Both the position numbers and the translations under genes were made by a program. From Crossaster papposus (Eukaryota > Echinodermata > Asteroidea > Velatida > Solasteridae): DNA of 64,000 bases. Below, in pieces: positions 1 through 57,767 of this stretch. Below the pieces are notes generated by a model, which saw nothing but the letters and a program-made list of their open reading frames with translations, was not told the DNA's origin and did no database searches. Within the stretch, counting starts at the first letter, position 1. Every line of letters starts with the position of its first letter. The stretch covers positions 124,001-188,000 of the forward strand of contig JBAIAA010000735.1 in assembly GCA_037893245.1 (NCBI GenBank). Direction: 5' to 3'.

Positions 1-41
1 TCTGCTGCTAATAAGTTTTTGGTATGACTTGAAGTACTCGA

Positions 42-113
42 CTCAGAGTGACAAAGTAGACCCTTTCTTGGTCAGTAACCGAGAGTTCGGATGATCACAA
101 CCTCGGTCTGCTC
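42..113 (+). pseudogene. R2 module: diverged tRNA-like relic, AGU at the anticodon position
   Basis: A 72-nt sequence that aligns without gaps to initiator tRNA-Met. By hand, the 3' half matches module A at 30 of 37 positions and the whole matches canonical iMet at about 70%. The acceptor keeps pairs 3:70 to 6:67 and ends TCTGCT. The anticodon stem CTTGG/CCGAG still pairs (one G-U), with loop TCAGTAA, so AGU stands where CAU should be. The D arm and T stem are degraded (T stem about 3 of 5 pairs). A T4 run follows 7 nt downstream. This is probably an old pseudogene; one copy sits between C and D in each unit. Confidence 0.6.
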
Positions 114-162
114 AGGATAATTTTGTATTTGATAGAGATTTCATTTTCATTAAAAATAGTTA

Positions 163-234
163 CGCAGAGTAGTGCAGCGGGAGCGTGATGGGCCCATAGC
201 CCAGAGGTCCGAGGACCAAAACCTCGCTTTGCTA
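163..234 (+). tRNA. D module: tRNA-Met(CAU)-like, probably degenerate
   Basis: 72 nt, iMet-derived, loop CCCATAG, so anticodon CAU with C33 and G38. Acceptor pairs 2:71 to 7:66 form (5:68 is G-U); position 1:72 is C/U. D stem GTGC pairs with GCGT through wobbles. Pair 27:43 is A/G. The T stem CGAGG/CCTCG is perfect, but the loop reads ACCAAAA, so U55 and G57 are changed and the B box is weakened. The A box TAGTGCAGCGG fits consensus. A T5 terminator candidate is at 243-247. One D copy occurs per unit, 174 nt upstream of A. Functional status uncertain. Confidence 0.6.
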
Positions 235-336
235 ATTAGGTATTTTTGCTTCACTGCTATTCACATTTAATAAATATTGTAGAATGTTTTTAGAATGTCA
301 GCTTTCATTTTGTTTGCATTTTCTAAATTTACATGA

Positions 337-408
337 GGCATAGTGGCGCAGTTGAAGCGTGCTGGGCCCATAACCCAGAGGTCCGAGGATCGAAACCTCG
401 CTCTGCTA
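337..408 (+). tRNA. A module: tRNA-iMet(CAU)-like, best-preserved class (reference copy)
   Basis: 72 nt without CCA. The anticodon arm CTGGG-CCCATAA-CCCAG is intact with anticodon CAU and C33, as in animal initiator tRNAs. The T arm CGAGG-ATCGAAA-CCTCG is perfect and keeps A54 and A60, which are eukaryotic initiator hallmarks. The A box TGGCGCAGTTG fits the Pol III consensus; the B box is the natural iMet form. Deviations from a canonical animal iMet: G1 in place of A1 (G1-U72 wobble instead of the A1-U72 identity pair), T5 facing C68, and G18 changed to T. A T5 terminator candidate lies at 414-418. It could be transcribed; initiator function is doubtful. The A copies below have this sequence unless a change is stated. 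Confidence 0.75.
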
Positions 409-413
409 ACAAG

Positions 414-418
414 TTTTT
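414..418 (+). terminator. Pol III T5 terminator candidate after A
   Basis: A TTTTT run starts 5 nt after the discriminator base. Equivalent runs follow D (243-247), B (642-646) and C (818-822), and recur in nearly all copies. Pol III stops at T4 or longer in animals. Confidence 0.6.
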
Positions 419-439
419 GGTATGACATGAGGTACTCGA

Positions 440-511
440 CTCGGGGTGACAAAGTAGACACTTTCTTGGTCAGTACCCGAGAGTTTGGTTGACCACAACC
501 TCGGTCTGCTC
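440..511 (+). pseudogene. R1 module: diverged tRNA-like relic
   Basis: Counterpart of R2 in the other half-unit, 72 nt. The 3' half matches module B at 26 of 37 positions without gaps by my hand alignment. The anticodon stem CTTGG/CCGAG pairs; the loop is TCAGTAC with AGU at the anticodon place. The T stem is largely lost (2 of 5 pairs). Unlike R2 it has no T4 run immediately downstream. Likely an old pseudogene that predates the duplication of the 401-bp monomer. Confidence 0.55.
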
Positions 512-560
512 AGGATAATTATTTCCTTGAAAGTGATTTCATTTTCATTACAAATAGTTA

Positions 561-633
561 CGCAGAGTGGTGCAGTGGGAAGCGTGATGGGCCCATAACC
601 CAAAGGCCCGAGGACCGAAACCTCGCTCTGCTA
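561..633 (+). tRNA. B module: tRNA-Met(CAU)-like (reference copy)
   Basis: 73 nt, one extra base in the D loop compared with A; many copies right of 28 kb have lost it. Acceptor pairs 2:71 to 7:66 are perfect, but 1:72 is C/U. The anticodon loop is CCCATAA (CAU, C33). Pair 27:43 is a purine mismatch. The T stem is perfect; the loop ACCGAAA has C in place of U55, which breaks the most conserved B-box base. The A box TGGTGCAGTGG fits consensus. T5 follows at 642-646. Copies lie 224 nt after the start of A in regular units (for example 1363, 2165, 2967, 3769). Confidence 0.65.
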
Positions 634-737
634 AAGAGGTATTTTTGCTTCACTGTTATTCAAATTTAATAATTATTTTAGAATGTTTTTAGAATGTCTG
701 CTTTTATTTTGTTTGTTGTTTTTCTAAATTTACATGA

Positions 738-809
738 GGCATGGTGGCGCAGTGGAAGCTTGCTGGGCCTATAACCCAGAGTGCCGAGGATCAAAACCTT
801 GTTCTGCTG
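738..809 (+). pseudogene. C module: iMet-derived with UAU anticodon (reference copy)
   Basis: 72 nt. The anticodon stem CTGGG/CCCAG is intact but the loop is CCTATAA, so CAU has become UAU (Ile-type, reading AUA) while C33 is kept. Elongator tRNAs need U33, so decoding is doubtful. Other damage: T5/C68 mismatch, G-U at 1:72, 6:67 and 7:66, C11 facing T24, altered variable loop (AGTGC) and G as discriminator followed by an extra CTA. The T loop is ATCAAAA. T5 follows at 818-822. The UAU change is present in every C copy I read. Confidence 0.6.
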
Positions 810-1138
810 CTAATAAGTTTTTGGTATGACTTGAAGTACTCGACTCAGAGTGACAAAGTAGACCCTTTCTTGGTCAGTAACCGAGAGTTCGGATGATCAC
901 AACCTCGGTCTGCTCAGGATAATTTTGTATTTGATAGGGATTTCATTTTCATTAAAAATAGTTACGCAGAGTAGTGCAGCGGGAGCGTGATGGGCCCATA
1001 GCCCAGAGGTCCGAGGACCAAAACCTCGCTTTGCTAATTAGGTATTTTTGCTTCACTGCTATTCACATTTAATAAATATTGTAGAATGTTTTTAGAATGT
1101 CAGCTTTCATTTTGTTTGCATTTTCTAAATTTACATGA

Positions 1139-1210
1139 GGCATAGTGGCGCAGTTGAAGCGTGCTGGGCCCATAACCCAGAGGTCCGAGGATCGAAACCT
1201 CGCTCTGCTA
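1139..1210 (+). tRNA. A-type tRNA-iMet(CAU)-like copy
   Basis: Matches the reference A copy; T5 follows. Confidence 0.7.
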
Positions 1211-1940
1211 ACAAGTTTTTGGTATGACATGAGGTACTCGACTCGGGGTGACAAAGTAGACACTTTCTTGGTCAGTACCCGAGAGTTTGGTTGACCACAA
1301 CCTCGGTCTGCTCAGGATAATTATTTCCTTGAAAGTGATTTCATTTTCATTACAAATAGTTACGCAGAGTGGTGCAGTGGGAAGCGTGATGGGCCCATAA
1401 CCCAAAGGCCCGAGGACCGAAACCTCGCTCTGCTAAAGAGGTATTTTTGCTTCACTGTTATTCAAATTTAATAATTATTTTAGAATGTTTTTAGAATGTC
1501 TGCTTTTATTTTGTTTGTTGTTTTTCTAAATTTACATGAGGCATGGTGGCGCAGTGGAAGCTTGCTGGGCCTATAACCCAGAGTGCCGAGGATCAAAACC
1601 TCGTTCTGCTGCTAATAAGTTTTTGGTATGACTTGAAGTACTCGACTCAGAGTGACAAAGTAGACCCTTTCTTGGTCAGTAACCGAGAGTTCGGATGATC
1701 ACAACCTCGGTCTGCTCAGGATAATTGTGTATTTGATAGGGATTTTATTTTCATTAAAAATAGTTACGCAGAGTAGTGCAGCGGGAGCGTGATGGGCCCA
1801 TAACCCAGAGGTCCGAGGACCAAAACCTCGCTTTGCTAACGAGGTATTTTTGCTTCACTGCTATTCACATTTAATAAATATTGTAGAATGTTTTTAGAAT
1901 GTCTGCTTTCATTTTGTTTGCATTTTCTAAATTTACATGA

Positions 1941-2012
1941 GGTATAGTGGCGCAGTTGAAGCGTGCTGGGCCCATAACCCAGAGGTCCGAGGATCAAAAC
2001 CTCACTCTGCTA
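1941..2012 (+). tRNA. A-type tRNA-Met(CAU)-like copy, variant
   Basis: Carries C3 to T (3:70 becomes T-G), G57 to A in the T loop, and G65 to A, which breaks pair 49:65. Less likely to be functional than the reference. Confidence 0.6.
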
Positions 2013-2742
2013 ACAAGTTTTTGGTATGACATGAGGTACTCGACTCGGAGTGACAAAGTAGACACTTTCTTGGTCAGTACCCGAGAGTTTGGTTGACCAC
2101 AACCTCGGTCTGCTCAGGATAATTATTTCCTTGAAAGTGATTTCATTTTCATTACAAATAGTTACGCAGAGTGGTGCAGTGGGAAGCGTGATGGGCCCAT
2201 AACCCAAAGGCCCGAGGACCGAAACCTCGCTCTGCTAAAGAGGTATTTTTGCTTCACTGTTATTCAAATTTAATAATTATTTTAGAATGTTTTTAGAATG
2301 TCTGCTTTTATTTTGTTTGTTGTTTTTCTAAATTTACATGAGGCATGGTGGCGCAGTGGAAGCTTGCTGGGCCTATAACCCAGAGTGCCGAGGATCAAAA
2401 CCTCGTTCTGCTGCTAATAAGTTTTTGGTATGACTTGAAGTACTCGACTCAGAGTGACAAAGTAGACCCTTTCTTGGTCAGTAACCGAGAGTTCGGATGA
2501 TCACAACCTCGGTCTGCTCAGGATAATTGTGTATTTGATAGGGATTTTATTTTCATTAAAAATAGTTACGCAGAGTAGTGCAGCGGGAGCGTGATGGGCC
2601 CATAACCCAGAGGTCCGAGGACCAAAACCTCGCTTTGCTAACGAGGTATTTTTGCTTCACTGCTATTCACATTTAATAAATATTGTAGAATGTTTTTAGA
2701 ATGTCTGCTTTCATTTTGTTTGCATTTTCTAAATTTACATGA

Positions 2743-2814
2743 GGTATAGTGGCGCAGTTGAAGCGTGCTGGGCCCATAACCCAGAGGTCCGAGGATCAAA
2801 ACCTCACTCTGCTA
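2743..2814 (+). tRNA. A-type tRNA-Met(CAU)-like copy, variant
   Basis: Shares all three changes of the copy at 1941-2012, so the two adjacent units are recent duplicates. Confidence 0.6.
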
Positions 2815-3544
2815 ACAAGTTTTTGGTATGACATGAGGTACTCGACTCGGAGTGACAAAGTAGACACTTTCTTGGTCAGTACCCGAGAGTTTGGTTGACC
2901 ACAACCTCGGTCTGCTCAGGATAATTATTTCCTTGAAAGTGATTTCATTTTCATTACAAATAGTTACGCAGAGTGGTGCAGTGGGAAGCGTGATGGGCCC
3001 ATAACCCAGAGGCCCGAGGACCGAAACCTCGCTCTGCTAAAGAGGTATTTTTGCTTCACTGTTATTCAAATTTAATAAATATTTTAGAATGTTTTTAGAA
3101 TGTCTGCTTTTATTTTGTTTGTTGTTTTTCTAAATTTACATCAGGCATGGTGGCGCAGTGGAAGCTTGCTAAGCCTATAACCCAGAGTGCCGAGGATCAA
3201 AACCTTGTTCTGCTGCTAATAAGTTTTTGGTATGACTTGAAGTACTCGACTCAGAGTGACAAAGTAGACCCTTTCTTGGTCAGTAACCGAGAGTTCGGAT
3301 GATCACAACCTCGGTCTGCTCAGGATAATTTTGTATTTGATAGAGATTTCATTTTCATTAAAAATAGTTACGCAGAGTAGTGCAGCGGGAGCGTGATGGG
3401 CCCATAGCCCAGAGGTCCGAGGACCAAAACCTCGCTTTGCTAATTAGGTATTTTTGCTTCACTGCTATTCACATTTAATAAATATTGTAGAATGTTTTTA
3501 GAATGTCAGCTTTCATTTTGTTTGCATTTTCTAAATTTACATGA

Positions 3545-3616
3545 GGCATAGTGGCGCAGTTGAAGCGTGCTGGGCCCATAACCCAGAGGTCCGAGGATCG
3601 AAACCTCGCTCTGCTA
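3545..3616 (+). tRNA. A-type tRNA-iMet(CAU)-like copy
   Basis: Matches the reference A copy. Its unit is a near-copy of the first unit, 3,208 bp (four units) away. Confidence 0.7.
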
Positions 3617-4346
3617 ACAAGTTTTTGGTATGACATGAGGTACTCGACTCGGAGTGACAAAGTAGACACTTTCTTGGTCAGTACCCGAGAGTTTGGTTGA
3701 CCACAACCTCGGTCTGCTCAGGATAATTATTTCCTTGAAAGTGATTTCATTTTCATTACAAATAGTTACGCAGAGTGGTGCAGTGGGAAGCGTGATGGGC
3801 CCATAACCCAAAGGCCCGAGGACCGAAACCTCGCTCTGCTAAAGAGGTATTTTTGCTTCACTGTTATTCAAATTTAATAATTATTTTAGAATGTTTTTAG
3901 AATGTCTGCTTTTATTTTGTTTGTTGTTTTTCTAAATTTACATGAGGCATGGTGGCGCAGTGGAAGCTTGCTGGGCCTATAACCCAGAGTGCCGAGGATC
4001 AAAACCTTGTTCTGCTGCTAATAAGTTTTTGGTATGACTTGAAGTACTCGACTCAGAGTGACAAAGTAGACCCTTTCTTGGTCAGTAACCGAGAGTTCGG
4101 ATGATCACAACCTCGGTCTGCTCAGGATAATTTTGTATTTGATAGGGATTTCATTTTCATTAAAAATAGTTACGCAGAGTAGTGCAGCGGGAGCGTGATG
4201 GGCCCATAGCCCAGAGGTCCGAGGACCAAAACCTCGCTTTGCTAATTAGGTATTTTTGCTTCACTGCTATTCACATTTAATAAATATTGTAGAATGTTTT
4301 TAGAATGTCAGCTTTCATTTTGTTTGCATTTTCTAAATTTACATGA

Positions 4347-4418
4347 GGCATAGTGGCGCAGTTGAAGCGTGCTGGGCCCATAACCCAGAGGTCCGAGGAT
4401 CGAAACCTCGCTCTGCTA
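4347..4418 (+). tRNA. A-type tRNA-iMet(CAU)-like copy
   Basis: Matches the reference A copy. The B copy of the same unit is followed by an extra T at 4643. Confidence 0.7.
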
Positions 4419-5149
4419 ACAAGTTTTTGGTATGACATGAGGTACTCGACTCGGGGTGACAAAGTAGACACTTTCTTGGTCAGTACCCGAGAGTTTGGTT
4501 GACCACAACCTCGGTCTGCTCAGGATAATTATTTCCTTGAAAGTGATTTCATTTTCATTACAAATAGTTACGCAGAGTGGTGCAGTGGGAAGCGTGATGG
4601 GCCCATAACCCAGAGGCCCGAGGACCGAAACCTCGCTCTGCTTAAAGAGGTATTTTTGCTTCACTGTTATTCAAATTTAATAATTATTTTAGAATGTTTT
4701 TAGAATGTCTGCTTTTATTTTGTTTGTTCTTTTTCTAAATTTACATGAGGCATGGTGGCGCAGTGGAAGCTTGCTGGGCCTATAACCCAGAGTGCCGAGG
4801 ATCAAAACCTCGTTCTGCTGCTAATAAGTTTTTGGTATGACTTGAAGTACTCGACTCAGAGTGACAAAGTAGACCCTTTCTTGGTCAGTAACCGAGAGTT
4901 CGGATGATCACAACCTCGGTCTGCTCAGGATAATTTTGTATTTGATAGGGATTTCATTTTCATTAAAAATAGTTACGCAGAGTAGTGCAGCGGGAGCGTG
5001 ATGGGCCCATAGCCCAGAGGTCCGAGGACCAAAACCTCGCTTTGCTAATTAGGTATTTTTGCTTCACTGCTATTCACATTTAATAAATATTGTAGAATGT
5101 TTTTAGAATGTCAGCTTTCATTTTGTTTGCATTTTCTAAATTTACATGA

Positions 5150-5221
5150 GGCATAGTGGCGCAGTTGAAGCGTGCTGGGCCCATAACCCAGAGGTCCGAG
5201 GATCGAAACCTCGCTCTGCTA
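5150..5221 (+). tRNA. A-type tRNA-iMet(CAU)-like copy
   Basis: Matches the reference A copy. Confidence 0.7.
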
Positions 5222-5951
5222 ACAAGTTTTTGGTATGACATGAGGTACTCGACTCGGGGTGACAAAGTAGACACTTTCTTGGTCAGTACCCGAGAGTTTG
5301 GTTGACCACAACCTCGGTCTGCTCAGGATAATTATTTCCTTGAAAGTGATTTCATTTTCATTACAAATAGTTACGCAGAGTGGTGCAGTGGGAAGCGTGA
5401 TGGGCCCATAACCCAGAGGCCCGAGGACCGAAACCTCGCTCTGCTAAAGAGGTATTTTTGCTTCACTGTTATTCAAATTTAATAATTATTTTAGAATGTT
5501 TTTAGAATGTCTGCTTTTATTTTGTTTGTTCTTTTTCTAAATTTACATGAGGCATGGTGGCGCAGTGGAAGCTTGCTGGGCCTATAACCCAGAGTGCCGA
5601 GGATCAAAACCTCGTTCTGCTGCTAATAAGTTTTTGGTATGACTTGAAGTACTCGACTCAGAGTGACAAAGTAGACCCTTTCTTGGTCAGTAACCGAGAG
5701 TTCGGATGATCACAACCTTGGTCTGCTCAGGATAATTTTGTATTTGATAGGGATTTCATTTTCATTAAAAATATTTACGCAGAGTAGTGCAGCGGGAGCG
5801 TGATGGGCCCATAGCCCAGAGGTCCGAGGACCAAAACCTCGCTTTGCTAACTAGGTATTTTTGCTTCACTGCTATTCACATTTAATAAATATTGTAGAAT
5901 GTTTTTAGAATGTCTGCTTTCATTTTGTTTGCATTTTCTAAATTTACATGA

Positions 5952-6023
5952 GGCATAGTGGCGCAGTTGAAGCGTGCTGGGCCCATAACCCAGAGGTCCG
6001 AGGATCGAAACCTCGCTCTGCTA
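5952..6023 (+). tRNA. A-type tRNA-iMet(CAU)-like copy
   Basis: Matches the reference A copy. Confidence 0.7.
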
Positions 6024-6753
6024 ACAAGTTTTTGGTATGACATGAGGTACTCGACTCGGAGTGACAAAGTAGACACTTTCTTGGTCAGTACCCGAGAGTT
6101 TGGTTGACCACAACCTCGGTCTGCTCAGGATAATTATTTCCTTGAAAGTGATTTCATTTTCATTACAAATAGTTACGCAGAGTGGTGCAGTGGGAAGCGT
6201 GATGGGCCCATAACCCAGAGGCCCGAGGACCGAAACCTCGCTCTGCTAAAGAGGTATTTTTGCTTCACTGTTATTCAAATTTAATAATTATTTTAGAATG
6301 TTTTTAGAATGTCTGCTTTTATTTTGTTTGTCGTTTTTCTAAATTTACATGAGGCATGGTGGCGCAGTGGAAGCTTGCTGGGCCTATAACCCAGAGTGCC
6401 GAGGATCAAAACCTCGTTCTGCTGCTAATAAGTTTTTGGTATGACTTGAAGTACTCGACTCAGAGTGACAAAGTAGACCCTTTCTTGGTCAGTAACCGAG
6501 AGTTCGGATGATCACAACCTCGGTCTGCTCAGGATAATTTTGTATTTGATAGGGATTTCATTTTCATTAAAAATAGTTACGCAGAGTAGTGCAGCGGGAG
6601 CGTGATGGGCCCATAGCCCAGAGGTCCGAGGACCAAAACCTCGCTTTGCTAATTAGGTATTTTTGCTTCACTGCTATTCACATTTAATAAATATTGTAGA
6701 ATGTTTTTAGAATGTCAGCTTTCATTTTGTTTGCATTTTCTAAACTTACATGA

Positions 6754-6825
6754 GGCATAGTGGCGCAGTTGAAGCGTGCTGGGCCCATAACCCAGAGGTC
6801 CGAGGATCGAAACCTCGCTCTGCTA
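6754..6825 (+). tRNA. A-type tRNA-iMet(CAU)-like copy
   Basis: tRNA part matches the reference; one C substitution lies in the 5' flank. Confidence 0.7.
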
Positions 6826-7556
6826 ACAAGTTTTTGGTATGACATGAGGTACTCGACTCGGGGTGACAAAGTAGACACTTTCTTGGTCAGTACCCGAGAG
6901 TTTGGTTGACCACAACCTCGGTCTGCTCAGGATAATTATTTCCTTGAAAGTGATTTCATTTTCATTACAAATAGTTACGCAGAGTGGTGCAGTGGGAAGC
7001 GTGATGGGCCCATAACCCAGAGGCCCGAGGACCGAAACCTCGCTCTGCTTAAAGAGGTATTTTTGCTTCACTGTTATTCAAATTTAATAATTATTTTAGA
7101 ATGTTTTTAGAATGTCTGCTTTTATTTTGTTTGTTCTTTTTCTAAATTTACATGAGGCATGGTGGCGCAGTGGAAGCTTGCTGGGCCTATAACCCAGAGT
7201 GCCGAGGATCAAAACCTCGTTCTGCTGCTAATAAGTTTTTGGTATGACTTGAAGTACTCGACTCAGAGTGACAAAGTAGACCCTTTCTTGGTCAGTAACC
7301 GAGAGTTCGGATGATCACAACCTCGGTCTGCTCAGGATAATTTTGTATTTGATAGGGATTTCATTTTCATTAAAAATAGTTACGCAGAGTAGTGCAGCGG
7401 GAGCGTGATGGGCCCATAGCCCAGAGGTCCGAGGACCAAAACCTCCCTTTGCTAATTAGGTATTTTTGCTTCACTGCTATTCACATTTAATAAATATTGT
7501 AGAATGTTTTTAGAATGTCAGCTTTCATTTTGTTTGCATTTTCTAAATTTACATGA

Positions 7557-7628
7557 GGCATAGTGGCGCAGTTGAAGCGTGCTGGGCCCATAACCCAGAG
7601 GTCCGAGGATCGAAACCTCGCTCTGCTA
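7557..7628 (+). tRNA. A-type tRNA-iMet(CAU)-like copy
   Basis: Matches the reference A copy. Confidence 0.7.
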
Positions 7629-8358
7629 ACAAGTTTTTGGTATGACATGAGGTACTCGACTCGGGGTGACAAAGTAGACACTTTCTTGGTCAGTACCCGA
7701 GAGTTTGGTTGACCACAACCTCGGTCTGCTCAGGATAATTATTTCCTTGAAAGTGATTTCATTTTCATTACAAATAGTTACGCAGAGTGGTGCAGTGGGA
7801 AGCGTGATGGGCCCATAACCCAGAGGCCCGAGGACCGAAACCTCGCTCTGCTAAAGAGGTATTTTTGCTTCACTGTTATTCAAATTTAATAATTATTTTA
7901 GAATGTTTTTAGAATGTCTGCTTTTATTTTGTTTGTTCTTTTTCTAAATTTACATGAGGCATGGTGGCGCAGTGGAAGCTTGCTGGGCCTATAACCCAGA
8001 GTGCCGAGGATCAAAACCTCGTTCTGCTGCTAATAAGTTTTTGGTATGACTTGAAGTACTCGACTCAGAGTGACAAAGTAGACCCTTTCTTGGTCAGTAA
8101 CCGAGAGTTCGGATGATCACAACCTCGGTCTGCTCAGGATAATTTTGTATTTGATAGGGATTTCATTTTCATTAAAAATATTTACGCAGAGTAGTGCAGC
8201 GGGAGCGTGATGGGCCCATAGCCCAGAGGTCCGAGGACCAAAACCTCGCTTTGCTAACTAGGTATTTTTGCTTCACTGCTATTCACATTTAATAAATATT
8301 GTAGAATGTTTTTAGAATGTCTGCTTTCATTTTGTTTGCATTTTCTAAATTTACATGA

Positions 8359-8430
8359 GGCATAGTGGCGCAGTTGAAGCGTGCTGGGCCCATAACCCAG
8401 AGGTCCGAGGATCGAAACCTCGCTCTGCTA
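8359..8430 (+). tRNA. A-type tRNA-iMet(CAU)-like copy
   Basis: Matches the reference A copy. Confidence 0.7.
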
Positions 8431-9160: not shown

Positions 9161-9232
9161 GGCATAGTGGCGCAGTTGAAGCGTGCTGGGCCCATAACCC
9201 AGAGGTCCGAGGATCGAAACCTCGCTCTGCTA
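9161..9232 (+). tRNA. A-type tRNA-iMet(CAU)-like copy
   Basis: Matches the reference A copy. Confidence 0.7.
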
Positions 9233-9962: not shown

Positions 9963-10034
9963 GGCATAGTGGCGCAGTTGAAGCGTGCTGGGCCCATAAC
10001 CCAGAGGTCCGAGGATCGAAACCTCGCTCTGCTA
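9963..10034 (+). tRNA. A-type tRNA-iMet(CAU)-like copy
   Basis: Matches the reference A copy. Confidence 0.7.
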
Positions 10035-29409: not shown

Positions 29410-29481
29410 GGCATAGTGGCGCAGTTGAAGCGTGCTGGGCCCATAACCCAGAGGTCCGAAGATCGAAACCTCGCTCTGCTA
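29410..29481 (+). tRNA. A-type tRNA-Met(CAU)-like copy, variant
   Basis: Has G52 to A, like the copy at 28385, and is likewise followed by R2. Confidence 0.6.
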
Positions 29482-29633
29482 ACAAGTTTTTGGTATGACT
29501 TGAAGTACTCGACTCAGAGTGACAAAGTAGACCCTTTCTTGGTCAGTAACCGAGAGTTCGGATGATCACAACCTCGGTCTGCTCAGGATAATTTTGTATT
29601 TGATAGGGATTTCATTTTCATTAAAAATAGTTA

Positions 29634-29705
29634 CGCAGAGTAGTGCAGCGGGAGCGTGATGGGCCCATAACCCAGAGGTCCGAGGACCAAAACCTCGCTC
29701 TGCTA
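29634..29705 (+). tRNA. D/A hybrid tRNA-Met(CAU)-like module
   Basis: Second D-to-A hybrid, 1,025 bp after the first, with the same crossover zone but C at 64. Confidence 0.65.
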
Positions 29706-30434
29706 ACAAGTTTTTGGTATGACATGAGGTACTCGACTCGGAGTGACAAAGTAGACACTTTCTTGGTCAGTACCCGAGAGTTTGGTTGACCACAACCTCG
29801 GTCTGCTCAGGATAATTATTTCTTTGAAAGTGATTTCATTTTCATTACAAATAGTTACGCAGAGTGGTGCAGTGGGAGCGTGATGGGCCCATAACCCAGA
29901 GGCCCGAGGACCGAAACCTCGCTCTGCTAAAGAGGTATTTTTGCTTCACTGTTATTCAAATTTAATAAATATTTTAGAATGTTTTTAGAATGTCTGCTTT
30001 TATTTTGTTTGTTGTTTTTCTAAATTTACATGAGGCATGGTGGCGCAGTGGAAGCTTGCTGGGCCTATAACCCAGAGTGCCGAGGATCAAAACCTCGTTC
30101 TGCTGCTAATAAGTTTTTGGTATGACTTGAAGTACTCGACTCAGAGTGACAAAGTAGACCCTTTCTTGGTCAGTAACCGAGAGTTCGGATGATCACAACC
30201 TCGGTCTGCTCAGGATAATTTTGTATTTGAAAGTGATTTCATTTTCATTACAAATAGTTACGCAAAGTGGTGCAGTGGGAGCGTGATGGGCCCATAACCC
30301 AGAGGCCCGAGAACCGAAACCTAGCTCTGCTAAAGAGGTATTTTTGCTTCACTGTTATTCAAATTTAATAAATATTGTAGAATGTTTTTAGAATGTTTGC
30401 TTTCATTTTGTTTGAATTCTCTAAATTTACATGA

Positions 30435-47571: not shown

Positions 47572-48281
47572 ACAAGTTTTTGGTATGACATGAGGTACTT
47601 GACTCGGAGTGACAAAGTAGACACTTTCTTGGTCAGTACCCGAGAGTTTGGTTGACCACAACCTCGGTCTGCTCAGGATAATTATTTCCTTGAAAGTGAT
47701 TTCATTTTCATTACAAATAGTTACGCAGAGTGGTGCAGTGGGAGCGTGATGGGCCCATAACCCAGAGGCCCGAGGACCGAAACCTCGCTCTGCTAAAGAG
47801 GTATTTTTGCTTCACTGTTATTCAAATTTAATAAATATTTTAGAATGTTTTTAGAATGTCTGCTTTTATTTTGTTTGTTGTTTTTCTAAATTTACATGAG
47901 GCATGGTGGCGCAGTGGAAGCTTGCTGGGCCTATAACCCAGAGTGCCGAGAATCAAAACCTTGTTCTGCTGCTAATAAGTACTCGACTCAGAGTGACAAA
48001 GTAGACCCTTTCTTGGTCAGTAACCGAGAGTTCGGATGATCACAACCTCGGTCTGCTCAGGATAATTTTGTATTTGATAGGGATTTCATTTTCATTAAAA
48101 ATAGTTACGCAGAGTAGTGCAGCGGGAGCGTGATGGGCCCATAACCCAGAGGTCCGAGGACCAAAACCTCGCTTTGCTAACGAGGTATTTTTGCTTCACT
48201 GCTATTCACATTTAATAAATATTGTAGAATGTTTTTAGAATGTCTGCTTTCATTTTGTTTGCATTTTCTAAATTTACATGA

Positions 48282-48353
48282 GGCATAGTGGCGCAGTTGA
48301 AGCGTGCTGGGCCCATAACCCAGAGGTCCGAGGATCGAAACCTCGCTCTGCTA
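48282..48353 (+). tRNA. A-type tRNA-iMet(CAU)-like copy
   Basis: Matches the reference A copy. Confidence 0.7.
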
Positions 48354-49082
48354 ACAAGTTTTTGGTATGACATGAGGTACTCGACTTAGAGTGACAAAGT
48401 AGACACTTTCTTGGTCAGTACCCGAGAGTTTGGTTGACCACAACCTCGGTCTGCTCAGGATAATTATTTCTTTGAAAGTGATTTCATTTTCATTACAAAT
48501 AGTTACGCAGAGTGGTGCAGTGGGAGCGTGATGGGCCCATAACCCAGAGGCCCGAGGACCGAAACCTTGCTCTGCTAAAGAGGTATTTTTGCTTCACTGT
48601 TATTCAAATTTAATAAATATTTTAGAATGTTTTTAGAATGTCTGCTTTTATTTTGTTTGTTGTTTTTCTAAATTTACATGAGGCATGGTGGCGCAGTGGA
48701 AGCTTGCTGGGCCTATAACCCAGAGTGCCGAGGATCAAAACCTTGTTCTGCTGCTAATAAGTTTTTGGTATGACTTGAAGTACTCGACTCAGAGTGACAA
48801 AGTAGACCCTTTCTTGGTCAGTAACCGAGAGTTCGGATGATCACAACCTCGGTCTGCTCAGGATAATTTTGTATTTGATAGGGATTTCATTTTCATTAAA
48901 AATAGTTACGCAGAGTAGTGCAGCGGGAGCGTGATGGGCCCATAACCCAGAGGTCCGAGGACCAAAACCTCGCTTTGCTAACGAGGTATTTTTGCTTCAC
49001 TGCTATTCACATTTAATAAATATTGTAGAATGTTTTTAGAATGTCTGCTTTCATTTTGTTTGTATTTTCTAAATTTACATGA

Positions 49083-49154
49083 GGCATAGTGGCGCAGTTG
49101 AAGCGTGCTGGGCCCATAACCCAGAGGTTCGAGGATCGAAACCTCGCTCTGCTA
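49083..49154 (+). tRNA. A-type tRNA-iMet(CAU)-like copy, variant
   Basis: C48 to T in the variable loop only. Confidence 0.65.
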
Positions 49155-49864
49155 ACAAGTTTTTGGTATGACATGAGGTACTCGACTTGGAGTGACAAAG
49201 TAGACACTTTCTTGGTCAGTACCCGAGAGTTTGGTTGACCACAACCTCGGTCTGCTCAGGATAATTATTTCTTTGAAAGTGATTTCATTTTCATTACAAA
49301 TAGTTACGCAGAGTGGTGCAGTGGGAGCGTGATGGGCCCATAACCCAGAGGCCCGAGGACCAAAACCTCGCTCTGCTAAAGAGGTATTTTTGCTTCACTG
49401 TTATTCAAATTTAATAAATATTTTAGAATGTTTTTAGAATGTCTGCTTTTATTTTGTTTGTTGTTTTTCTAAATTTACATGAGGCATGGTGGCGCAGTGG
49501 AAGCTTGCTGGGCCTATAACCCAGAGTGCCGAGAATCAAAACCTTGTTCTGCTGCTAATAAGTACTCGACTCAGAGTGACAAAGTAGACCCTTTCTTGGT
49601 CAGTAACCGAGAGTTCGGATGATCACAACCTCGGTCTGCTCAGGATAATTTTGTATTTGATAGGGATTTCATTTTCATTAAAAATAGTTACGCAGAGTAG
49701 TGCAGCGGGAGCGTGATGGGCATATAACCCAGAGGTCCGAGGACCAAAACCTCGCTTTGCTAACGAGGTATTTTTGCTTCACTGCTATTCACATTTAATA
49801 AATATTGTAGAATGTTTTTAGAATGTCTGCTTTCATTTTGTTTGCATTTTCTAAATATACATGA

Positions 49865-49936
49865 GGCATAGTGGCGCAGTTGAAGCGTGCTGGGCCAATA
49901 ACCCAGAGGTCCGAGGATCGAAACCTCGCTCTGCTA
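49865..49936 (+). tRNA. A-type module with AAU anticodon
   Basis: CAU to AAU; C33 kept. The D module before it (near 49691-49762) has loop CATATAA, so UAU. Confidence 0.6.
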
Positions 49937-50646
49937 ACAAGTTTTTGGTATGACATGAGGTACTCGACTCGGAGTGACAAAGTAGACACTTTCTTGGTCA
50001 GTACCCGAGAGTTTGGTTGACCACAACCTCGGTCTGCTCAGGATAATTATTTCCTTGAAAGTGATTTCATTTTCATTACAAATAGTTACGCAGAGTGGTG
50101 CAGTGGGAGCGTGATGGGCCCATAACCCAGAGGCCCGAGGACCGAAACCTTGCTCTGCTAAAGAGGTATTTTTGCTTCACTGTTATTCAAATTTAATAAA
50201 TGTTTTAGAATGTTTTTAGAATGTCTGCTTTTATTTTGTTTGTTGTTTTTTTAAATTTACATGAGGCATGGTGGCGCAGTGGAAGCTTGCTGGGCCTATA
50301 ACCCAGAGTGCCGAGAATCAAAACCTTGTTCTGCTGCTAATAAGTACTCGACTCAGAGTGACAAAGTAGACCCTTTCTTGGTCAGTAACCGAGAGTTCGG
50401 ATGATCACAACCTCGGTCTGCTCAGGATAATTTTGTATTCGATAGGGATTTCATTTTCATTAAAAATAGTTACGCAGAGTAGTGCAGCGGGAGCGTGATG
50501 GGCCCATAACCCAGAGGTCCGAGGACCAAAACCTCGCTTTGCTAACGAGGTATTTTTGCTTCACTGCTATTCACATTTAATAAACATTGTAGAATGTTTT
50601 TAGAATGTCTGCTTTCATTTTGTTTGCATTTTCTAAATATACATGA

Positions 50647-50718
50647 GGCATAGTGGCGCAGTTGAAGCGTGCTGGGCCCATAACCCAGAGGTTCGAGGAT
50701 CGAAACCTCGCTCTGCTA
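50647..50718 (+). tRNA. A-type tRNA-iMet(CAU)-like copy, variant
   Basis: C48 to T. Confidence 0.65.
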
Positions 50719-51428
50719 ACAAGTTTTTGGTATGACATGAGGTACTCGACTCGGAGTGACAAAGTAGACACTTTCTTGGTCAGTACCCGAGAGTTTGGTT
50801 GACCACAACCTCGGTCTGCTCAGGATAATTATTTCCTTGAAAGTGATTTCATTTTCATTACAAATAGTTACGCAGAGTGGTGCAGTGGGAGTGTGATGGG
50901 CCCATAACCCAGAGGCCCGAAGACCGAAACCTCGCTCTGCTAAAGAGGTATTTTTGCTTCACTGTTATTCAAATTTAATAAATATTTTAGAATGTTTTTA
51001 GAATGTCTGCTTTTATTTTGTTTGTTGTTTTTCTAAATTTACATGAGGCATGGTGGCGCAGTGGAAGCTTGCTGGGCCTATAACCCAGAGTGCCGAGAAT
51101 CAAAACCTTGTTCTGCTGCTAATAAGTACTCGACTCAGAGTGACAAAGTAGACCCTTTCTTGGTCAGTAACCGAGAGTTCGGATGATCACAACCTCGGTC
51201 TGCTCAGGATAATTTTGTATTTGATAGGGATTTCATTTTCATTAAAAATAGTTACGCAGAGTAGTGCAGCGGGAGCGTGATGGGCCCATAACCCAGAGGT
51301 CCGAGGACCAAAATCTCGCTTTGCTAACGAGGTATTTTTGCTTCACTGCTATTCACATTTAATAAATATTGTAGAATGTTTTTAGAATGTCTGCTTTCAT
51401 TTTGTTTGCATTTTCTAAATTTACATGA

Positions 51429-51500
51429 GGCATAGTGGCGCAGTTGAAGCGTGCTGGGCCCATAACCTAGAGGTTCGAGGATCGAAACCTCGCTCTGCTA
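51429..51500 (+). tRNA. A-type tRNA-Met(CAU)-like copy, variant
   Basis: C41 to T in the anticodon stem (G-U) and C48 to T. Confidence 0.6.
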
Positions 51501-52229
51501 ACAAGTTTTTGGTATGACATGAGGTACTCGACTCGGAGTGACAAAGTAGACACTTTCTTGGTCAGTACCCGAGAGTTTGGTTGACCACAACCTCGGTCTG
51601 CTCAGGATAATTATTTCTTTGAAAGTGATTTCATTTTCATTACAAATAGTTACGCAGAGTGGTGCAGTGGGAGCGTGATGGGCCCATAACCCAGAGGCCC
51701 GAGGACCGAAACCTCGCTCTGCTAAAGAGGTATTTTTGCTTCACTGTTATTCAAATTTAATAAATATTTTAGAATGTTTTTAGAATGTCTGCTTTTATTT
51801 TGTTTGTTGTTTTTCTAAATTTACATGAGGCATGGTGGCGCAGTGGAAGCTTGCTGGGCCTATAACCCAGAGTGCCGAGGATCAAAACCTTGTTCTGCTG
51901 CTAATAAGTTTTTGGTATGACTTGAAGTACTCGACTCAGAGTGACAAAGTAGACCCTTTCTTGGTCAGTAACCGAGAGTTCGGATGATCACAACCTCGGT
52001 CTGCTCAGGATAATTTTGTATTTGATAGGGATTTCATTTTCATTAAAAATAGTTACGCAGAGTAGTGCAGCGGGAGCGTGATGGGCCCATAACCAAGAGG
52101 TCCGAGGACCAAAACCTCGCTTTGCTAACGAGGTATTTTTGCTTCACTGCTATTCACATTTAATAAATATTGTAGAATGTTTTTAGAATGTCTGCTTTCA
52201 TTTTGTTTGTATTTTATAAATTTACATGA

Positions 52230-52301
52230 GGCATAGTGGCGCAGTTGAAGCGTGCTGGGCCCATAACCCAGAGGTTCGAGGATCGAAACCTCGCTCTGCT
52301 A
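52230..52301 (+). tRNA. A-type tRNA-iMet(CAU)-like copy, variant
   Basis: C48 to T. Confidence 0.65.
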
Positions 52302-53011
52302 ACAAGTTTTTGGTATGACATGAGGTACTCGACTTGGAGTGACAAAGTAGACACTTTCTTGGTCAGTACCCGAGAGTTTGGTTGACCACAACCTCGGTCT
52401 GCTCAGGATAATTATTTCTTTGAAAGTGATTTCATTTTCATTACAAATAGTTACGCAGAGTGGTGCAGTGGGAGCGTGATGGGCCCATAACCCAGAGGCC
52501 CGAGGACCAAAACCTCGCTCTGCTAAAGAGGTATTTTTGCTTCACTGTTATTCAAATTTTATAAATATTTTAGAATGTTTTTAGAATGTCTGCTTTTATT
52601 TTGTTTGTTGTTTTTCTAAATTTACATGAGGCATGGTGGCGCAGTGGAAGCTTGCTGGGCCTATAACCCAGAGTGCCGAGAATCAAAACCTTGTTCTGCT
52701 GCTAATAAGTACTCGACTCAGAGTGACAAAGTAGACCCTTTCTTGGTCAGTAACCGAGAGTTCGGATGATCACAACCTCGGTCTGCTCAGGATAATTTTG
52801 TATTTGATAGGGATTTCATTTTCATTAAAAATAGTTACGCAGAGTAGTGCAGCGGGAGCGTGATGGGCCCATAACCCAGAGGTCCGAGGACCAAAACCTC
52901 GCTTTGCTAACGAGGTATTTTTGCTTCACTGCAATTCACATTTAATAAATATTGTAGAATGTTTTTAGAATGTCTGCTTTCATTTTGTTTGCATTTTCTA
53001 AATTTACATGA

Positions 53012-53083
53012 GGCATAGTGGCGCAGTTGAAGCGTGCTGGGCCCATAACCCAGAGGTCCAAGGATCGAAACCTCGCTCTGCTA
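53012..53083 (+). tRNA. A-type tRNA-Met(CAU)-like copy, variant
   Basis: G50 to A breaks a T-stem pair. The downstream T run is extended to six. Confidence 0.6.
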
Positions 53084-53794
53084 ACAAGTTTTTTGGTATG
53101 ACATGAGGTACTCGACTAGGAGTGACAAAGTAGACACTTTCTTGGTCAGTACCCGAGAGTTTGGTTGACCACAACCTCGGTCTGCTCAGGATAATTATTT
53201 CTTTGAAAGTGATTTCATTTTCATTACAAATAGTTACGCAGAGTGGTGCAGTGGGAGCGTGATAGGCCCATAACCCAGAGGCCCGAGGACCGAAACCTCG
53301 CTCTGCTAAAGAGGTATTTTTGCTTCACTGTTATTCAAATTTAATAAATATTTTAGAATGTTTTTAGAATGTCTGCTTTTATTTTGTTTGTTGTTTTTCT
53401 AAATTTACATGAGGCATGGTGGCGCAGTGGAAGCTTGCTGGGCCTATAACCCAGAGTGCCGAGAATCAAAACCTTGTTCTGCTGCTAATAAGTACTCGAC
53501 TCAGAGTGACAAAGTAGACCCTTTCTTGGTCAGTAACCGAGAGTTCGGATGATCACAACCTCGGTCTGCTCAGGATAATTTTGTATTTGATAGGGATTTC
53601 ATTTTCATTAAAAATAGTTACGCAGAGTAGTGCAGCGGGAGCGTGATGGGCCCATAACCCAGAGGTCCGAGGACCAAAACCTCGCTTTGCTAACGAGGTA
53701 TTTTTGCTTCACTGCTATTCACATTTAATAAATATTGTAGAATGTTTTTAGAATGTCTGCTTTCATTTTGTTTGCATTTTCTAAATTTACACGA

Positions 53795-53866
53795 GGCATA
53801 GTGGCGCAGTTGAAGCGTGCTGGGCCAATAACCCAGAGGTCCGAGGATGGAAACCTCGCTCTGCTA
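53795..53866 (+). tRNA. A-type module with AAU anticodon
   Basis: CAU to AAU, plus C56 to G in the T loop, which damages the B box. Confidence 0.55.
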
Positions 53867-54576
53867 ACAAGTTTTTGGTATGACATGATGTACTCGACTT
53901 GGAGTGACAAAGTAGACACTTTCTTGGTCAGTACCTGAGAGTTTGGTTGACCACAACCTCGGTCTGCTCAGGATAATTATTTCCTTGAAAGTGATTTCAT
54001 TTTCATTACAAATAGTTACGCAGAGTGGTGCAGTGGGAGCGTGGTGGGCCCATAACCCAGAGGCCCGAGGACCGAAACCTCGCTCTGCTAAAGAGGTATT
54101 TTTGCTTCATTGTTATTCAAATTTAATAAATATTTTAGAATGTTTTTAGAATGTCTGCTTTTATTTTGTTTGTTGTTTTTCTAAATTTACATGAGGCATG
54201 GTGGCGCAGTGGAAGCTTGCTGGGCCTATAACCCAGAGTGCCGAGAATCAAAACCTTGTTCTGCTGCTAATAAGTACTCGACTCAGAGTGACAAAGTAGA
54301 CCCTTTCTTGGTCAGTAACCGAGAGTTCGGATGATCACAACCTCGGTCTGCTCAGGATAATTTTGTATTTGATAGGGATTTCATTTTCATTAAAAATAGT
54401 TACGCAGAGTAGTGCAGCGGGAGCGTGATGGGCATATAACCCAGAGGTCCGAGGACCAAAACCTCGCTTTGCTAACGAGGTATTTTTGCTTCACTGCTAT
54501 TCACATTTAATAAATATTGTAGAATGTTTTTAGAATGTCTGCTTTCATTTTGTTTGCATTTTCTAAATATACATGA

Positions 54577-54648
54577 GGCATAGTGGCGCAGTTGAAGCGT
54601 GCTGGGCCAATAACCCAGAGGTCCCAGGATCGAAACCTCGCTCTGCTA
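54577..54648 (+). tRNA. A-type module with AAU anticodon
   Basis: CAU to AAU, plus G50 to C, which breaks a T-stem pair. The D module before it has loop CATATAA. Confidence 0.55.
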
Positions 54649-55358
54649 ACAAGTTTTTGGTATGACATGAGGTACTCGACTCGGAGTGACAAAGTAGACA
54701 CTTTCTTGGTCAGTACCCGAGAGTTTGGTTGACCACAACCTCGGTCTGCTCAGGATAATTATTTCCTTGAAAGTGATTTCATTTTCATTACAAATAGTTA
54801 CGCAGAGTGGTGCAGTGGGAGCGTGATGGGCCCATAACCCAGAGGCCCGAGGACCGAAACCTCGCTCTGCTAAAGAGGTATTTTTGCTTCACTGTTATTC
54901 AAATTTAATAAATATTTTAGAATGTTTTTAGAATGTCTGCTTTTATTTTGTTTGTTGTTTTTCTAAATTTACATGAGGCATGGTGGCGCAGTGGAAGCTT
55001 GCTGGGCCTATAACCCAGAGTGCCGAGAATCAAAACCTTGTTCTGCTGCTAATAAGTACTCGACTCAGAGTGACAAAGTAGACCCTTTCTTGGTCAGTAA
55101 CCGAGAGTTCGGATGATCACAACCTCGGTCTGCTCAGGATAATTTTGTATTTGATAGGGATTTCATTTTCATTAAAAATAGTTACGAAGAGTAGTGCAGC
55201 GGGAGCGTGATGGGCATATAACCCAGAGGTCCGAGGACCAAAACCTCGCTTTGCTAACGAGGTATTTTTGCTTCACTGCTATTCACATTTAATAAATATT
55301 GTAGAATGTTTTTAGAATGTCTGCTTTCATTTTGTTTGCATTTTCTAAATATACATGA

Positions 55359-55430
55359 GGCATAGTGGCGCAGTTGAAGCGTGCTGGGCCAATAACCCAG
55401 AGGTCCGAGGATCGAAACCTCGCTCTGCTA
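55359..55430 (+). tRNA. A-type module with AAU anticodon
   Basis: CAU to AAU; otherwise as the reference. The D module before it has loop CATATAA, as at 49.7 and 54.4 kb. Confidence 0.6.
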
Positions 55431-56141
55431 ACAAGTTTTTGGTATGACATGAGGTACTCGACTCGGAGTGACAAAGTAGACACTTTCTTGGTCAGTACCC
55501 GAGAGTTTGGTTGACCACAACCTCGGTCTGCTCAGGATAATTATTTCCTTGAAAGTAATTTCATTTTCATTACAAATAGTTACGCAGAGTGGTGCAGTGG
55601 GAAGCGTGATGGGCCCATAACCCAGAGGCCCGAGGACCGAAACCTCGCTCTGCTAAAGAGGTATTTTTGCTTCACTGTTATTCAAATTTAATAAATATTT
55701 TAGAATGTTTTTAGAATGTCTGCTTTTATTTTGTTTGTTGTTTTTCTAAATGTACATGAGGCATGGTGGCGCAGTGGAAGCTTGCTGGGCCTATAACCCA
55801 GAGTGCCGAGAATCAAAACCTTGTTCTGCTGCTAATAAGTACTCGACTCAGAGTGACAAAGTAGACCCTTTCTTGGTCAGTAACCGAGAGTTCGGATGAT
55901 TACAACCTCGGTCTGCTCAGGATAATTTTGTATTTGATAGGGATTTCATTTTCATTAAAAATAGTTACGAAGAGTAGTGCAGCGGGAGCGTGATGGGCCC
56001 ATAGCCCAGAGGTCCGAGGACCAAAACCTCACTTTGCTAACTAGGTATTTTTGCTTCACTGCTATTCACATTTAATAAATATTGTAGAATGTTTTTAGAA
56101 TGTCTGCTTTCATTTTGTTTGCATTTTCTAAATTTACATGA

Positions 56142-56213
56142 GGCATAGTGGCGCAGTTGAAGCGTGCTGGGCCCATAACCCAGAGGTCCGAGGATCGAAA
56201 CCTCGCTCTGCTA
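56142..56213 (+). tRNA. A-type tRNA-iMet(CAU)-like copy
   Basis: Matches the reference A copy. Confidence 0.7.
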
Positions 56214-56923
56214 ACAAGTTTTTGGTATGACATGAGGTACTCGACTCGGAGTGACAAAGTAGACACTTTCTTGGTCAGTACCCGAGAGTTTGGTTGACCA
56301 CAACCTCGGTCTGCTCAGGATAATTATTTCCTTGAAAGTGATTTCATTTTCATTACAAATAGTTACGCAGAGTGGTGCAGTGGGAGCGTGATGGGCCCAT
56401 AACCCAGAGGCCCGAGGACCGAAACCTCGCTCTGCTAAAGAGGTATTTTTGCTTCACTGTTATTCAAATTTAATAAATATTTTAGAATGTTTTTAGAATG
56501 TCTGCTTTTATTTTGTTTGTTGTTTTTCTAAATTTACATGAGGCATGGTGGCGCAGTGGAAGCTTGCTGGGCCTATAACCCAGATTGCCGAGAATCAAAA
56601 CCTTGTTCTGCTGCTAATAAGTACTCGACTCAGAGTGACAAAGTAGACCCTTTCTTGGTCAGTAACCGAGAGTTCGGATGATCACAACCTCGGTCTGCTC
56701 AGGATAATTTTGTATTTGATAGGGATTTCATTTTCATTAAAAATAGTTACGCAGAGTAGTGCAGCGGGAGCGTGATGGGCCCATAGCCCAGAGGTCCGAG
56801 GACCAAAACCTCGCTTTGCTAACTAGGTATTTTTGCTTCACTGCTATTCACATTTAATAAATATTGTAGAATGTTTTTAGAATGTCTGCTTTCATTTTGT
56901 TTGCATTTTCTAAATTTACATGA

Positions 56924-56995
56924 GGCATAGTGGCGCAGTTGAAGCGTGCTGGGCCCATAACCCAGAGGTCCGAGGATCGAAACCTCGCTCTGCTA
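56924..56995 (+). tRNA. A-type tRNA-iMet(CAU)-like copy
   Basis: Matches the reference; last complete A copy before the array ends. Confidence 0.7.
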
Positions 56996-57147
56996 ACAAG
57001 TTTTTGGTATGACATGAGGTACTCGACTCGGAGTGACAAAGTAGACACTTTCTTGGTCAGTACCCAAGAGTTTGGTTGACCACAACCTCGGTCTGCTCAG
57101 GATAATTATTTCCTTGAAAGTGATTTCATTTTCATTACAAATAGTTA

Positions 57148-57220
57148 CGCAGAGTGGTGCAGTGGGAAGCGTGATGGGCCCATAACCCAGAGGCCCGAGG
57201 ACCGAAACCTCGCTCTGCTA
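57148..57220 (+). tRNA. B/A hybrid tRNA-Met(CAU)-like module
   Basis: Body of a B copy whose 3' flank is A-type (ACAAG and T5), followed by a second R1 and B. The crossover lies in the last bases shared by both modules, and C is skipped. Confidence 0.65.
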
Positions 57221-57762
57221 ACAAGTTTTTGGTATGACATGAGGTACTAGACTCGGAGTGACAAAGTAGACACTTTCTTGGTCAGTACCCGGGAGTTTGG
57301 TTGACCACAACCTCGGTCTGCTCAGGATAATTATTTTCTTGAAAGTGATTTCATTTTCATTACAAATAGTTACGCAGAGTGGTGCCGTGGGAGCGTGATG
57401 GGCCCATAACCCAGAGGCCCGAGGACCGAAACCTCGCTCTGCTAAAGAGGTATTTTTGCTTCACTGTTATTCAAATTTAATAATTATTTTAGAATGTTTT
57501 TAGAATGTCTGCTTTTATTTTGTTTGTTGTTTTTCTAAATTTACATGAGGCATGGTGGCGCAGTGGAAGCTTGCTGGGCCTATAACCCAGAGTGCCGAGG
57601 ATCAAAACCTCGTTCTGCTGCTAATAAGTTTTTGGTATGACTTGAAGTACTCGACTCAGAGTGACAAAGTAGACCCTTTCTTGGTCAGTAACCGAGAGTT
57701 CGGATGATCACAACCTCGGTCTGCTCAGGATAATTTTGTATTTGATAGGGATTTCATTTTCA

Positions 57763-57767
57763 TTAAA
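57763..57767. other. Junction between array 1 and array 2
   Basis: Array 1 stops in the spacer between R2 and D. TTAAA is shared by the spacer and by the start of the second repeat, so the crossover cannot be placed more finely. Array 2 starts exactly at the left end of an alpha module. Confidence 0.85.

What the first reader, a model, noticed from the sequence alone, without database searches (positions are those of the whole stretch)
1..57767. A 58-kb satellite made almost wholly of initiator-tRNA-Met-derived modules
Seen: an 802-bp HOR in which three 72-73 nt modules per 401 bp descend from iMet, all in one direction. Known: animal tDNA arrays exist but usually mix several tRNA species. 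Inference: a single-family Pol III satellite of several hundred modules may act in chromatin (TFIIIC binding, insulation, replication pausing) or supply tRNA or tRNA fragments, rather than only tRNA for initiation.
Basis: partly seen in the sequence, partly recalled or inferred. Interest (0 to 1): 0.85.

Follow-up and report, generated by a model that had tools for sequence, protein, structure and literature searches.

The report
Sea-star satellite of decayed initiator tRNAs
A long stretch of what looks like a sea-star genome is a repeat built from copies of the tRNA gene that starts every protein; the copies here look too worn to work as that tRNA, while close relatives elsewhere in the same genome look intact.

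Summary
The array is real. Window 1-57,767 is an 802-bp higher-order repeat of two 401-bp halves, each C-s1-D-s2-A-s3, with 143 C, 146 A and 147 D modules, all on +. C and A are initiator-tRNA (iMet) derived; D is an iMet descendant, and the two D copies tested no longer score as tRNA. Modules fill about 54% of the unit.

None of the 289 C/A modules looks like a normal initiator: 0 keep A1:T72, 0 have a fully paired acceptor stem, and 75 of 143 C modules carry anticodon TAT. Modules are no more conserved than spacers.

The family is genome-wide: 24,749 exact anticodon arms, roughly 10 Mb. It also holds 1,281 exact copies of a fully paired iMet gene. No vertebrate-type iMet T arm was found. This sea star's initiator genes therefore probably live inside the satellite, and the window is a decayed part of it. 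Asp and Lys T-arm motifs also lie in rows of their own; a Pro motif occurs once.

Single-family iMet satellite: holds. Initiator supply from this window: not supported. Chromatin role: untested.

The parts
1..57767 (+). iMet-derived satellite array, 802-bp higher-order repeat (two about 401-bp halves), running on to the left of the window (to C735:109,277)
337..408 (+). example C module, phase 2 (C1): 49.8 bits, the best tRNA score in the window; anticodon CAT, exact iMet B box; G1 instead of A1, T5:C68 mismatch (canonical numbering)
409..439 (+). spacer s1, begins ACAAGTTTTTGG (terminator-like T run)
440..512 (+). example D module: degenerate iMet descendant, not listed as tRNA by Rfam
513..560 (+). 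spacer s2
561..633 (+). example A module, phase 2: 39.2 bits; C at position 1, broken first anticodon-stem pair, changed T loop
634..737 (+). spacer s3, near its start GGTATTTTTGC (terminator-like T run)
738..809 (+). example C module, phase 1 (C2): 33.9 bits, anticodon TAT
844..916 (+). example D module, phase 1 (D2)
965..1036 (+). example A module, phase 1 (A2): 32.1 bits
28404..28905 (+). 224-bp period stretch (A module joined to s1), read as a product of misaligned exchange between A and C; similar at 29429-29930 and 56925-57445
48000..57700 (+). part of the array where the commonest higher-order period is 782 bp; in the copy near 56,615 s1 lacks about 20 bp including its T run
57767..64000 (.). 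neighbouring satellite, period about 1.72 kb, with Ser/Leu-tRNA-like pieces on the - strand; matches continue on C735:188-226 kb; not part of the iMet array

Best explanation
The window is a decayed, homogenised form of a satellite that grew out of tandem initiator-tRNA genes in a sea star. Proposed course: an iMet gene with its spacer amplified by unequal exchange into 174-bp and 224-bp units; the D copy and then the A copies lost tRNA structure; a two-phase 802-bp unit with already broken C modules arose, was amplified to thousands of copies and spread over several contigs in both directions, kept alike by exchange. Shown here: the anatomy, the lesions, the genome-wide family, the intact sister arrays, and no extra conservation of modules. 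Inferred: the order of events, and unequal exchange or conversion as the driver. For the window the most likely function is none as a tRNA source: a passive satellite carrying weakened Pol III promoter pieces. The working initiator genes are most likely among the intact copies in sister arrays.
For: Segmentation and order. Both phases present on C735 (both strands), C556, C13 and C723, with between-array distances over the same range as within-array ones: phase 1 0.014-0.026 against 0.012-0.026, phase 2 0.009-0.021 against 0.007-0.020. 0 of 146 A and 0 of 143 C modules with A1:T72 or a fully paired acceptor stem. Diversity in C modules (0.033, 0.022 in phases 1, 2) not below spacers s3 (0.023, 0.015) and s2 (0.025, 0.015). 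CpG columns of C and A change more often than other columns; CpG observed/expected 0.729 in the array, 1.144 in the flanking satellite. 24,749 exact anticodon arms genome-wide, reversed control 0. 7,123 exact 35-base 5' parts of the window's C1 form; 1,281 exact 72-base intact iMet copies, of which 0 in the window. A sister array on C146 with 174- and 224-bp spacing and 16 exact intact copies in 10 kb, 58.7 bits against 49.8 for the window's best. A-to-s1 junctions that suggest exchange between A and C modules.
Against: 61 of 143 C modules keep the exact B box, and most C and A modules keep a T run downstream, so some transcription or TFIIIC binding is possible. Part of the C-module diversity comes from copies that switch phase-specific bases together, so the conservation test is weaker than its numbers suggest. 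Even in the intact C146 array, gene-like modules (pi 0.011, already selected for likeness) are not below their spacers (0.002 and 0.004), so this test does not tell working from dead copies. No expression, methylation or read-depth data were available.
Confidence: 0.72

Rival explanations
1. Chromatin reading: the array is kept because its many B-box-like sites bind TFIIIC and make a boundary, a clustering site or a replication-pausing block, without making tRNA.
For: Exact iMet B box in 61 of 143 C modules; TTTT within 22 bp downstream of 122 of 143 C and 144 of 146 A modules; one direction over about 72 kb. A human tDNA repeat at 1q23.3 binds CTCF and carries both euchromatin and heterochromatin marks (PMC4041453, abstract and section headings seen).
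Against: The exact B box is absent from 146 of 146 A, 82 of 143 C and 147 of 147 D modules. Two B-box columns of C (55, 56) are among the polymorphic ones, and modules are not more conserved than spacers.
Confidence: 0.15
2. Gene-reserve reading: the whole family, window included, is a large reserve of initiator genes switched on in oocytes or early embryos, like other repeated Pol III genes.
For: 1,281 exact fully paired copies lie in the genome; T runs kept. [quoted passage not shown]
Against: The window has 0 exact intact copies and 0 of 289 modules with A1:T72. The reading can hold for sister arrays, not for this one.
Confidence: 0.08
3. Mobile-element reading: the unit is a tandem form of a retroelement with a tRNA-derived promoter (SINE-derived satellite, or a Helenus-type element with tRNA in its LTR).
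For: SINE-derived satellites exist in squamate reptiles (PMC10702118, abstract seen). Zebrafish LTR-11_DR, a Helenus element, forms tandem arrays (PMC10886601, passages seen). The neighbouring satellite has Ser/Leu-tRNA-like pieces.
Against: Full-length iMet genes with paired stems share the same spacers, which points to a gene as the source. I did not search for target-site duplications, primer-binding sites or dispersed copies.
Confidence: 0.05

Closest known systems
Animal tDNA clusters (Bermudez-Santana et al. 2010, PMC2888827, abstract and passages seen)
   Different: The passages describe mostly heterogeneous neighbours in Nematostella, frog and zebrafish (mostly homogeneous pairs in Tetrahymena, Monosiga and drosophilids). 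Here one isotype builds a higher-order satellite, mostly of changed copies.
Human 1q23.3 tRNA variable-number repeat (PMC4041453, abstract and headings seen)
   Same: tRNA-bearing tandem repeat with many copies.
   Different: 7.3-kb GC-rich units, tRNA genes under 6% of the unit, 9-43 units per allele. Here units are 401/802 bp, modules about 54% of the unit, thousands of copies.
Arabidopsis tRNA clusters: SYY (PMC12308677, passages seen) and tRNA-Cys (PMC10701932, start of abstract seen in a listing)
   Same: Tandem tDNA clusters, SYY silent in most tissues; tRNA-Cys is a single-isotype cluster with 0.4-kb units.
   Different: Plant; SYY genes can work; the Cys cluster has four genes.
Entamoeba tDNA arrays (named in PMC2888827; details recalled)
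   Same: tRNA genes in tandem repeats as normal genome organisation.
   Different: Short units of working genes in a protist (recalled).
Asterias amurensis tRNA counts (PMC11090083: 6,779; PMC10625585: 14,926; passages seen)
   Same: A sea star with thousands of predicted tRNAs; high totals are already in print.
   Different: The passages seen give totals only: no isotype, array or satellite structure.
SINE-derived satellites of squamates (PMC10702118, abstract seen)
   Same: Satellite DNA from tandem copies of a Pol III-type repeat.
   Different: Derived from parts of retroelements, not from a tRNA gene with its flanks.

Membership tests
Satellite DNA (higher-order repeat) | Long head-to-tail array, one direction, closely similar units | tested here: met
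Satellite DNA (higher-order repeat) | Units homogenised within and between arrays | tested here: met
   within-phase mean distances 0.7-2.6%, between arrays over the same range
Satellite DNA (higher-order repeat) | High copy number, several loci | tested here: met
   24,749 anticodon-arm and 7,123 C1-part exact matches; several contigs
Functional eukaryotic initiator tRNA gene (window modules) | A1:T72 pair (recalled as an initiator identity element) | tested here: not met
   0 of 289
Functional eukaryotic initiator tRNA gene (window modules) | All four stems paired | tested here: not met
   0 of 289
Functional eukaryotic initiator tRNA gene (window modules) | CAT anticodon | tested here: inconclusive
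   mixed: 140 of 146 A and 62 of 143 C
Functional eukaryotic initiator tRNA gene (window modules) | Purifying selection on the gene body | tested here: inconclusive
   no sign: module diversity not below spacers; the test also fails to single out intact copies
Functional eukaryotic initiator tRNA gene (sister arrays) | A1:T72, all stems paired, ATCGAAA T loop | tested here: met
   one such 72-mer has 1,281 exact copies; 58.7 bits
Functional eukaryotic initiator tRNA gene (sister arrays) | Transcribed, processed, charged | not testable with these tools
   no expression data
tRNA-derived retroelement (SINE or Helenus TRIM) in tandem | Target-site duplications; tail, or PBS and PPT | not tested
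   no search for dispersed copies was made

The most novel reading that the evidence does not exclude
In this sea star the essential initiator-tRNA genes exist only inside a satellite family of roughly 10 Mb: about 1,281 intact copies among some 24,700 anticodon-arm matches, most of the rest presumably decayed, with gene arrays giving rise to pseudogene satellite. Other tRNA isotypes are likewise housed in isotype-specific satellites (Asp 2,759 and Lys 72 T-arm motifs in rows of their own), so the gene dose for translation is set by satellite turnover.
Probability: 0.4. Interest if true: 0.78.

Novelty: new variant of a known kind. Interest (0 to 1): 0.6.

Why it matters
If right, it shows an essential gene turning into satellite DNA within one genome, with intact, mixed and fully changed arrays side by side. 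That makes the birth of a satellite from a gene, and the fate of Pol III promoters inside satellites, directly testable. It also suggests that the high tRNA totals printed for sea-star genomes could be largely satellite copies and should not be read as gene dose without an isotype and array breakdown.

Tried and rejected
1. Vertebrate-type initiator genes elsewhere in the genome: the T arm with up to 3 mismatches gave 0. This excludes only that T-arm form, not dispersed copies with this species' own T arm.

2. Selection test on the C146 arrays: gene-like modules were chosen by likeness (69 of 72 or more, A1), which biases the test. Results were mixed: L049 pi 0.011 against 0.002 and 0.004 in spacers; L036-L038 0.018-0.026 against 0.027-0.044. 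Not used as evidence for constraint.

3. Rfam on the neighbouring satellite: no tRNA at E up to 0.5; two weak scaRNA rows judged chance.

4. Generality across isotypes: Asp and Lys motifs lie in rows, but a Pro motif gave 1 match. So 'every tRNA is a satellite' is not shown; a different Pro sequence in this species would also give that result.

5. 18S search for taxonomy failed twice; the mitochondrial contig was used instead.

6. Helenus/TRIM and SINE origins were considered from the literature and ranked low, but not tested.

7. Dropped rows: the diversity test used 378 units of 370-420 bp and left out other lengths, and its phase figures use 186 + 172 of them. In one search, BLAST pieces under 60% of a piece's length, or overlapping a better one by 30% or more, were dropped.
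Full report
WHERE IT IS. The window is bases 124,001-188,000 of contig C735 (228 kb) in a 1.023-Gb assembly of 1,841 contigs. The 16,330-bp contig C1841 carries a mitochondrial cox1 that reads well with the echinoderm code. Frames that I recognise by eye as nad1 and nad2 lie on the strand opposite to cox1, which I recall as the sea-star order. The species name is unknown to me; 'sea star' is an inference.

THE OBSERVATION. The array fills window 1-57,767. It is a 401-bp unit in two alternating versions, hence 802 bp. Segmenting with six pieces gives 143 C, 146 A and 147 D modules with spacers s1, s2 and s3 in fixed order, all on +. Exceptions are three A-to-s1 junctions (224-bp stretches), a few units in which s1 or s2 was not picked up, and a 782-bp form prominent from about 48 kb on. 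In the stretches fetched, the array continues leftward to C735:109,277. A second array on the opposite strand covers C735:1-20,000; 20-100 kb of that contig was not read.

ARE THE MODULES tRNA? C and A are by descent and, for most, by score: Rfam gives 211 tRNA matches over threshold in the window, against 289 C/A modules; the best is 49.8 bits. The two D copies tested are not listed as tRNA, yet two D references align to iMet at 41 and 45 of 72 bases, above all 500 shuffles each.

WHY THEY DO NOT LOOK LIKE ORDINARY INITIATORS. Aligned to the intact copy found elsewhere, 0 of 143 C and 0 of 146 A modules keep A1:T72, 0 have a fully paired acceptor stem, and 0 have all stems paired. The ATCGAAA T loop survives in 66 of 143 C and 0 of 146 A modules. 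The anticodon is CAT in 62 of 143 C modules (75 TAT, 5 AAT, 1 missing) and in 140 of 146 A modules (3 TAT, 3 missing). That A1:T72 matters for initiators is recalled knowledge. Module diversity within each phase is not below that of the spacers: phase 1, 186 units, C 0.033, A 0.021, D 0.018, s1 0.022, s2 0.025, s3 0.023; phase 2, 172 units, C 0.022, A 0.016, D 0.013, s1 0.022, s2 0.015, s3 0.015. The decayed D module is, if anything, the least diverse. CpG columns change more often (phase 2 C: 4.7 against 1.5 substitutions per column), which fits methylation but is partly due to phase mixing.

THE GENOME-WIDE FAMILY. The 17-mer anticodon arm GGGCCCATAACCCAGAG occurs 24,749 times exactly, reversed control 0. 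At the window's density of 2.56 per kb that is about 9.7 Mb; densities of 1.5-3.7 per kb in 13 other 10-kb array stretches give 6.7-16.5 Mb, on the order of 1% of the assembly. This assumes that most matches lie in such arrays; only part of the places were listed. A 35-base 5' part of the window's C1 form occurs 7,123 times, 58 of them in the window, or about 7 Mb of the window's type by the same reckoning. Full-length rows of the 801-base query fall on C735, C556, C13 and C723 at 98-100% identity, one at 94% (only the best candidates were scored). Between-array distances span the same range as within-array ones.

THE INTACT RELATIVES. Among fetched stretches, a 72-mer with A1:T72, all stems paired and the ATCGAAA loop recurs, on C146 and C262. 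Genome-wide it has 1,281 exact copies, 41 on + and 1,240 on -; the places listed are all on C146, and where most of the others lie was not listed. In C146:5,468,001-5,478,000 there are 16 exact copies in 10 kb, mostly spaced by 174 and 224 bp steps, with the same spacers and interleaved with broken A modules. The copies score 58.7 bits. A search for the vertebrate-type T arm with up to 3 mismatches found nothing. The 12 loci I looked at, of 40 iMet hits listed, all carry the satellite's spacers. So I infer that this species' initiator genes lie in this family; single dispersed copies with the same T arm are not excluded. Constraint on the intact copies could not be shown.

OTHER tRNAs. A Lys T-arm motif occurs 72 times: 29 on C28:271-374 kb, 42 on C360:1.009-1.097 Mb, 1 on C110. 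An Asp motif occurs 2,759 times: 4 on C40, and every other place listed is on C729, mostly about 158 bp or its multiples apart. A Pro motif occurs once. These are motif counts; whole genes were not checked. Isotype-specific arrays are thus likely for some tRNAs here, not shown for all.

HOW IT MOST LIKELY WORKS. Gene-plus-spacer units amplified by unequal exchange; some copies decayed; a decayed two-phase unit took over and spread. Exchange between A and C modules is suggested by A-to-s1 junctions and by groups of copies with phase-specific bases of the other phase. The window then needs no function as a tRNA source. Residual B boxes and T runs leave TFIIIC binding or short unstable transcripts possible; this is inference.

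LITERATURE. Nine searches of the held library were made. By titles and starts of abstracts, no listed paper is on an iMet satellite or on tRNA satellites in sea stars. Two of the searches matched over 1,000 papers of which 20 were listed, and most subscription papers are not held, so this is weak evidence of absence. Sea-star tRNA totals are in print (6,779 and 14,926 in two Asterias amurensis papers; passages seen). The Zoroaster genome paper was searched for terms only; 'tRNA' does not occur in its main text.

VERDICT. A new variant of tDNA array / tRNA-derived satellite.

Noticed in passing
window 57767-64000, and C735:188-226 kb (L032-L035): A second satellite, period about 1.72 kb, directly abutting the iMet array. 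Its - strand has Ser/Leu-tRNA-like stretches (best local score 47 against at most 34 in 100 shuffles) and GGTTCGA B-box-like motifs.
   Followed up: partly
G000:C8 (5.3 Mb), L021 and L023-L024: Long open COX1-family frames, one read out and by eye of bacterial cyoB type, suggesting that this contig is a bacterial symbiont or contaminant.
   Followed up: partly
G000:C729 from about 575 kb: Asp T-arm motif in rows, mostly about 158 bp or its multiples apart; 2,755 forward exact matches genome-wide, those listed all on C729. A possible tRNA-Asp satellite.
   Followed up: no
G000:C28:271-374 kb and C360:1.009-1.097 Mb: Lys T-arm motif in rows, 29 and 42 exact matches.
   Followed up: no
G000:C146:5.44-5.50 Mb and 4.30-4.43 Mb: Arrays in which exact intact iMet copies alternate with broken ones; in the 10 kb read at 5.47 Mb the spacing is 174 and 224 bp. 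Possible precursors of the window's unit.
   Followed up: partly
G000:C735:1-20000 against 109277-181767: Two iMet arrays of opposite direction on one contig; 20-100 kb was not read.
   Followed up: no
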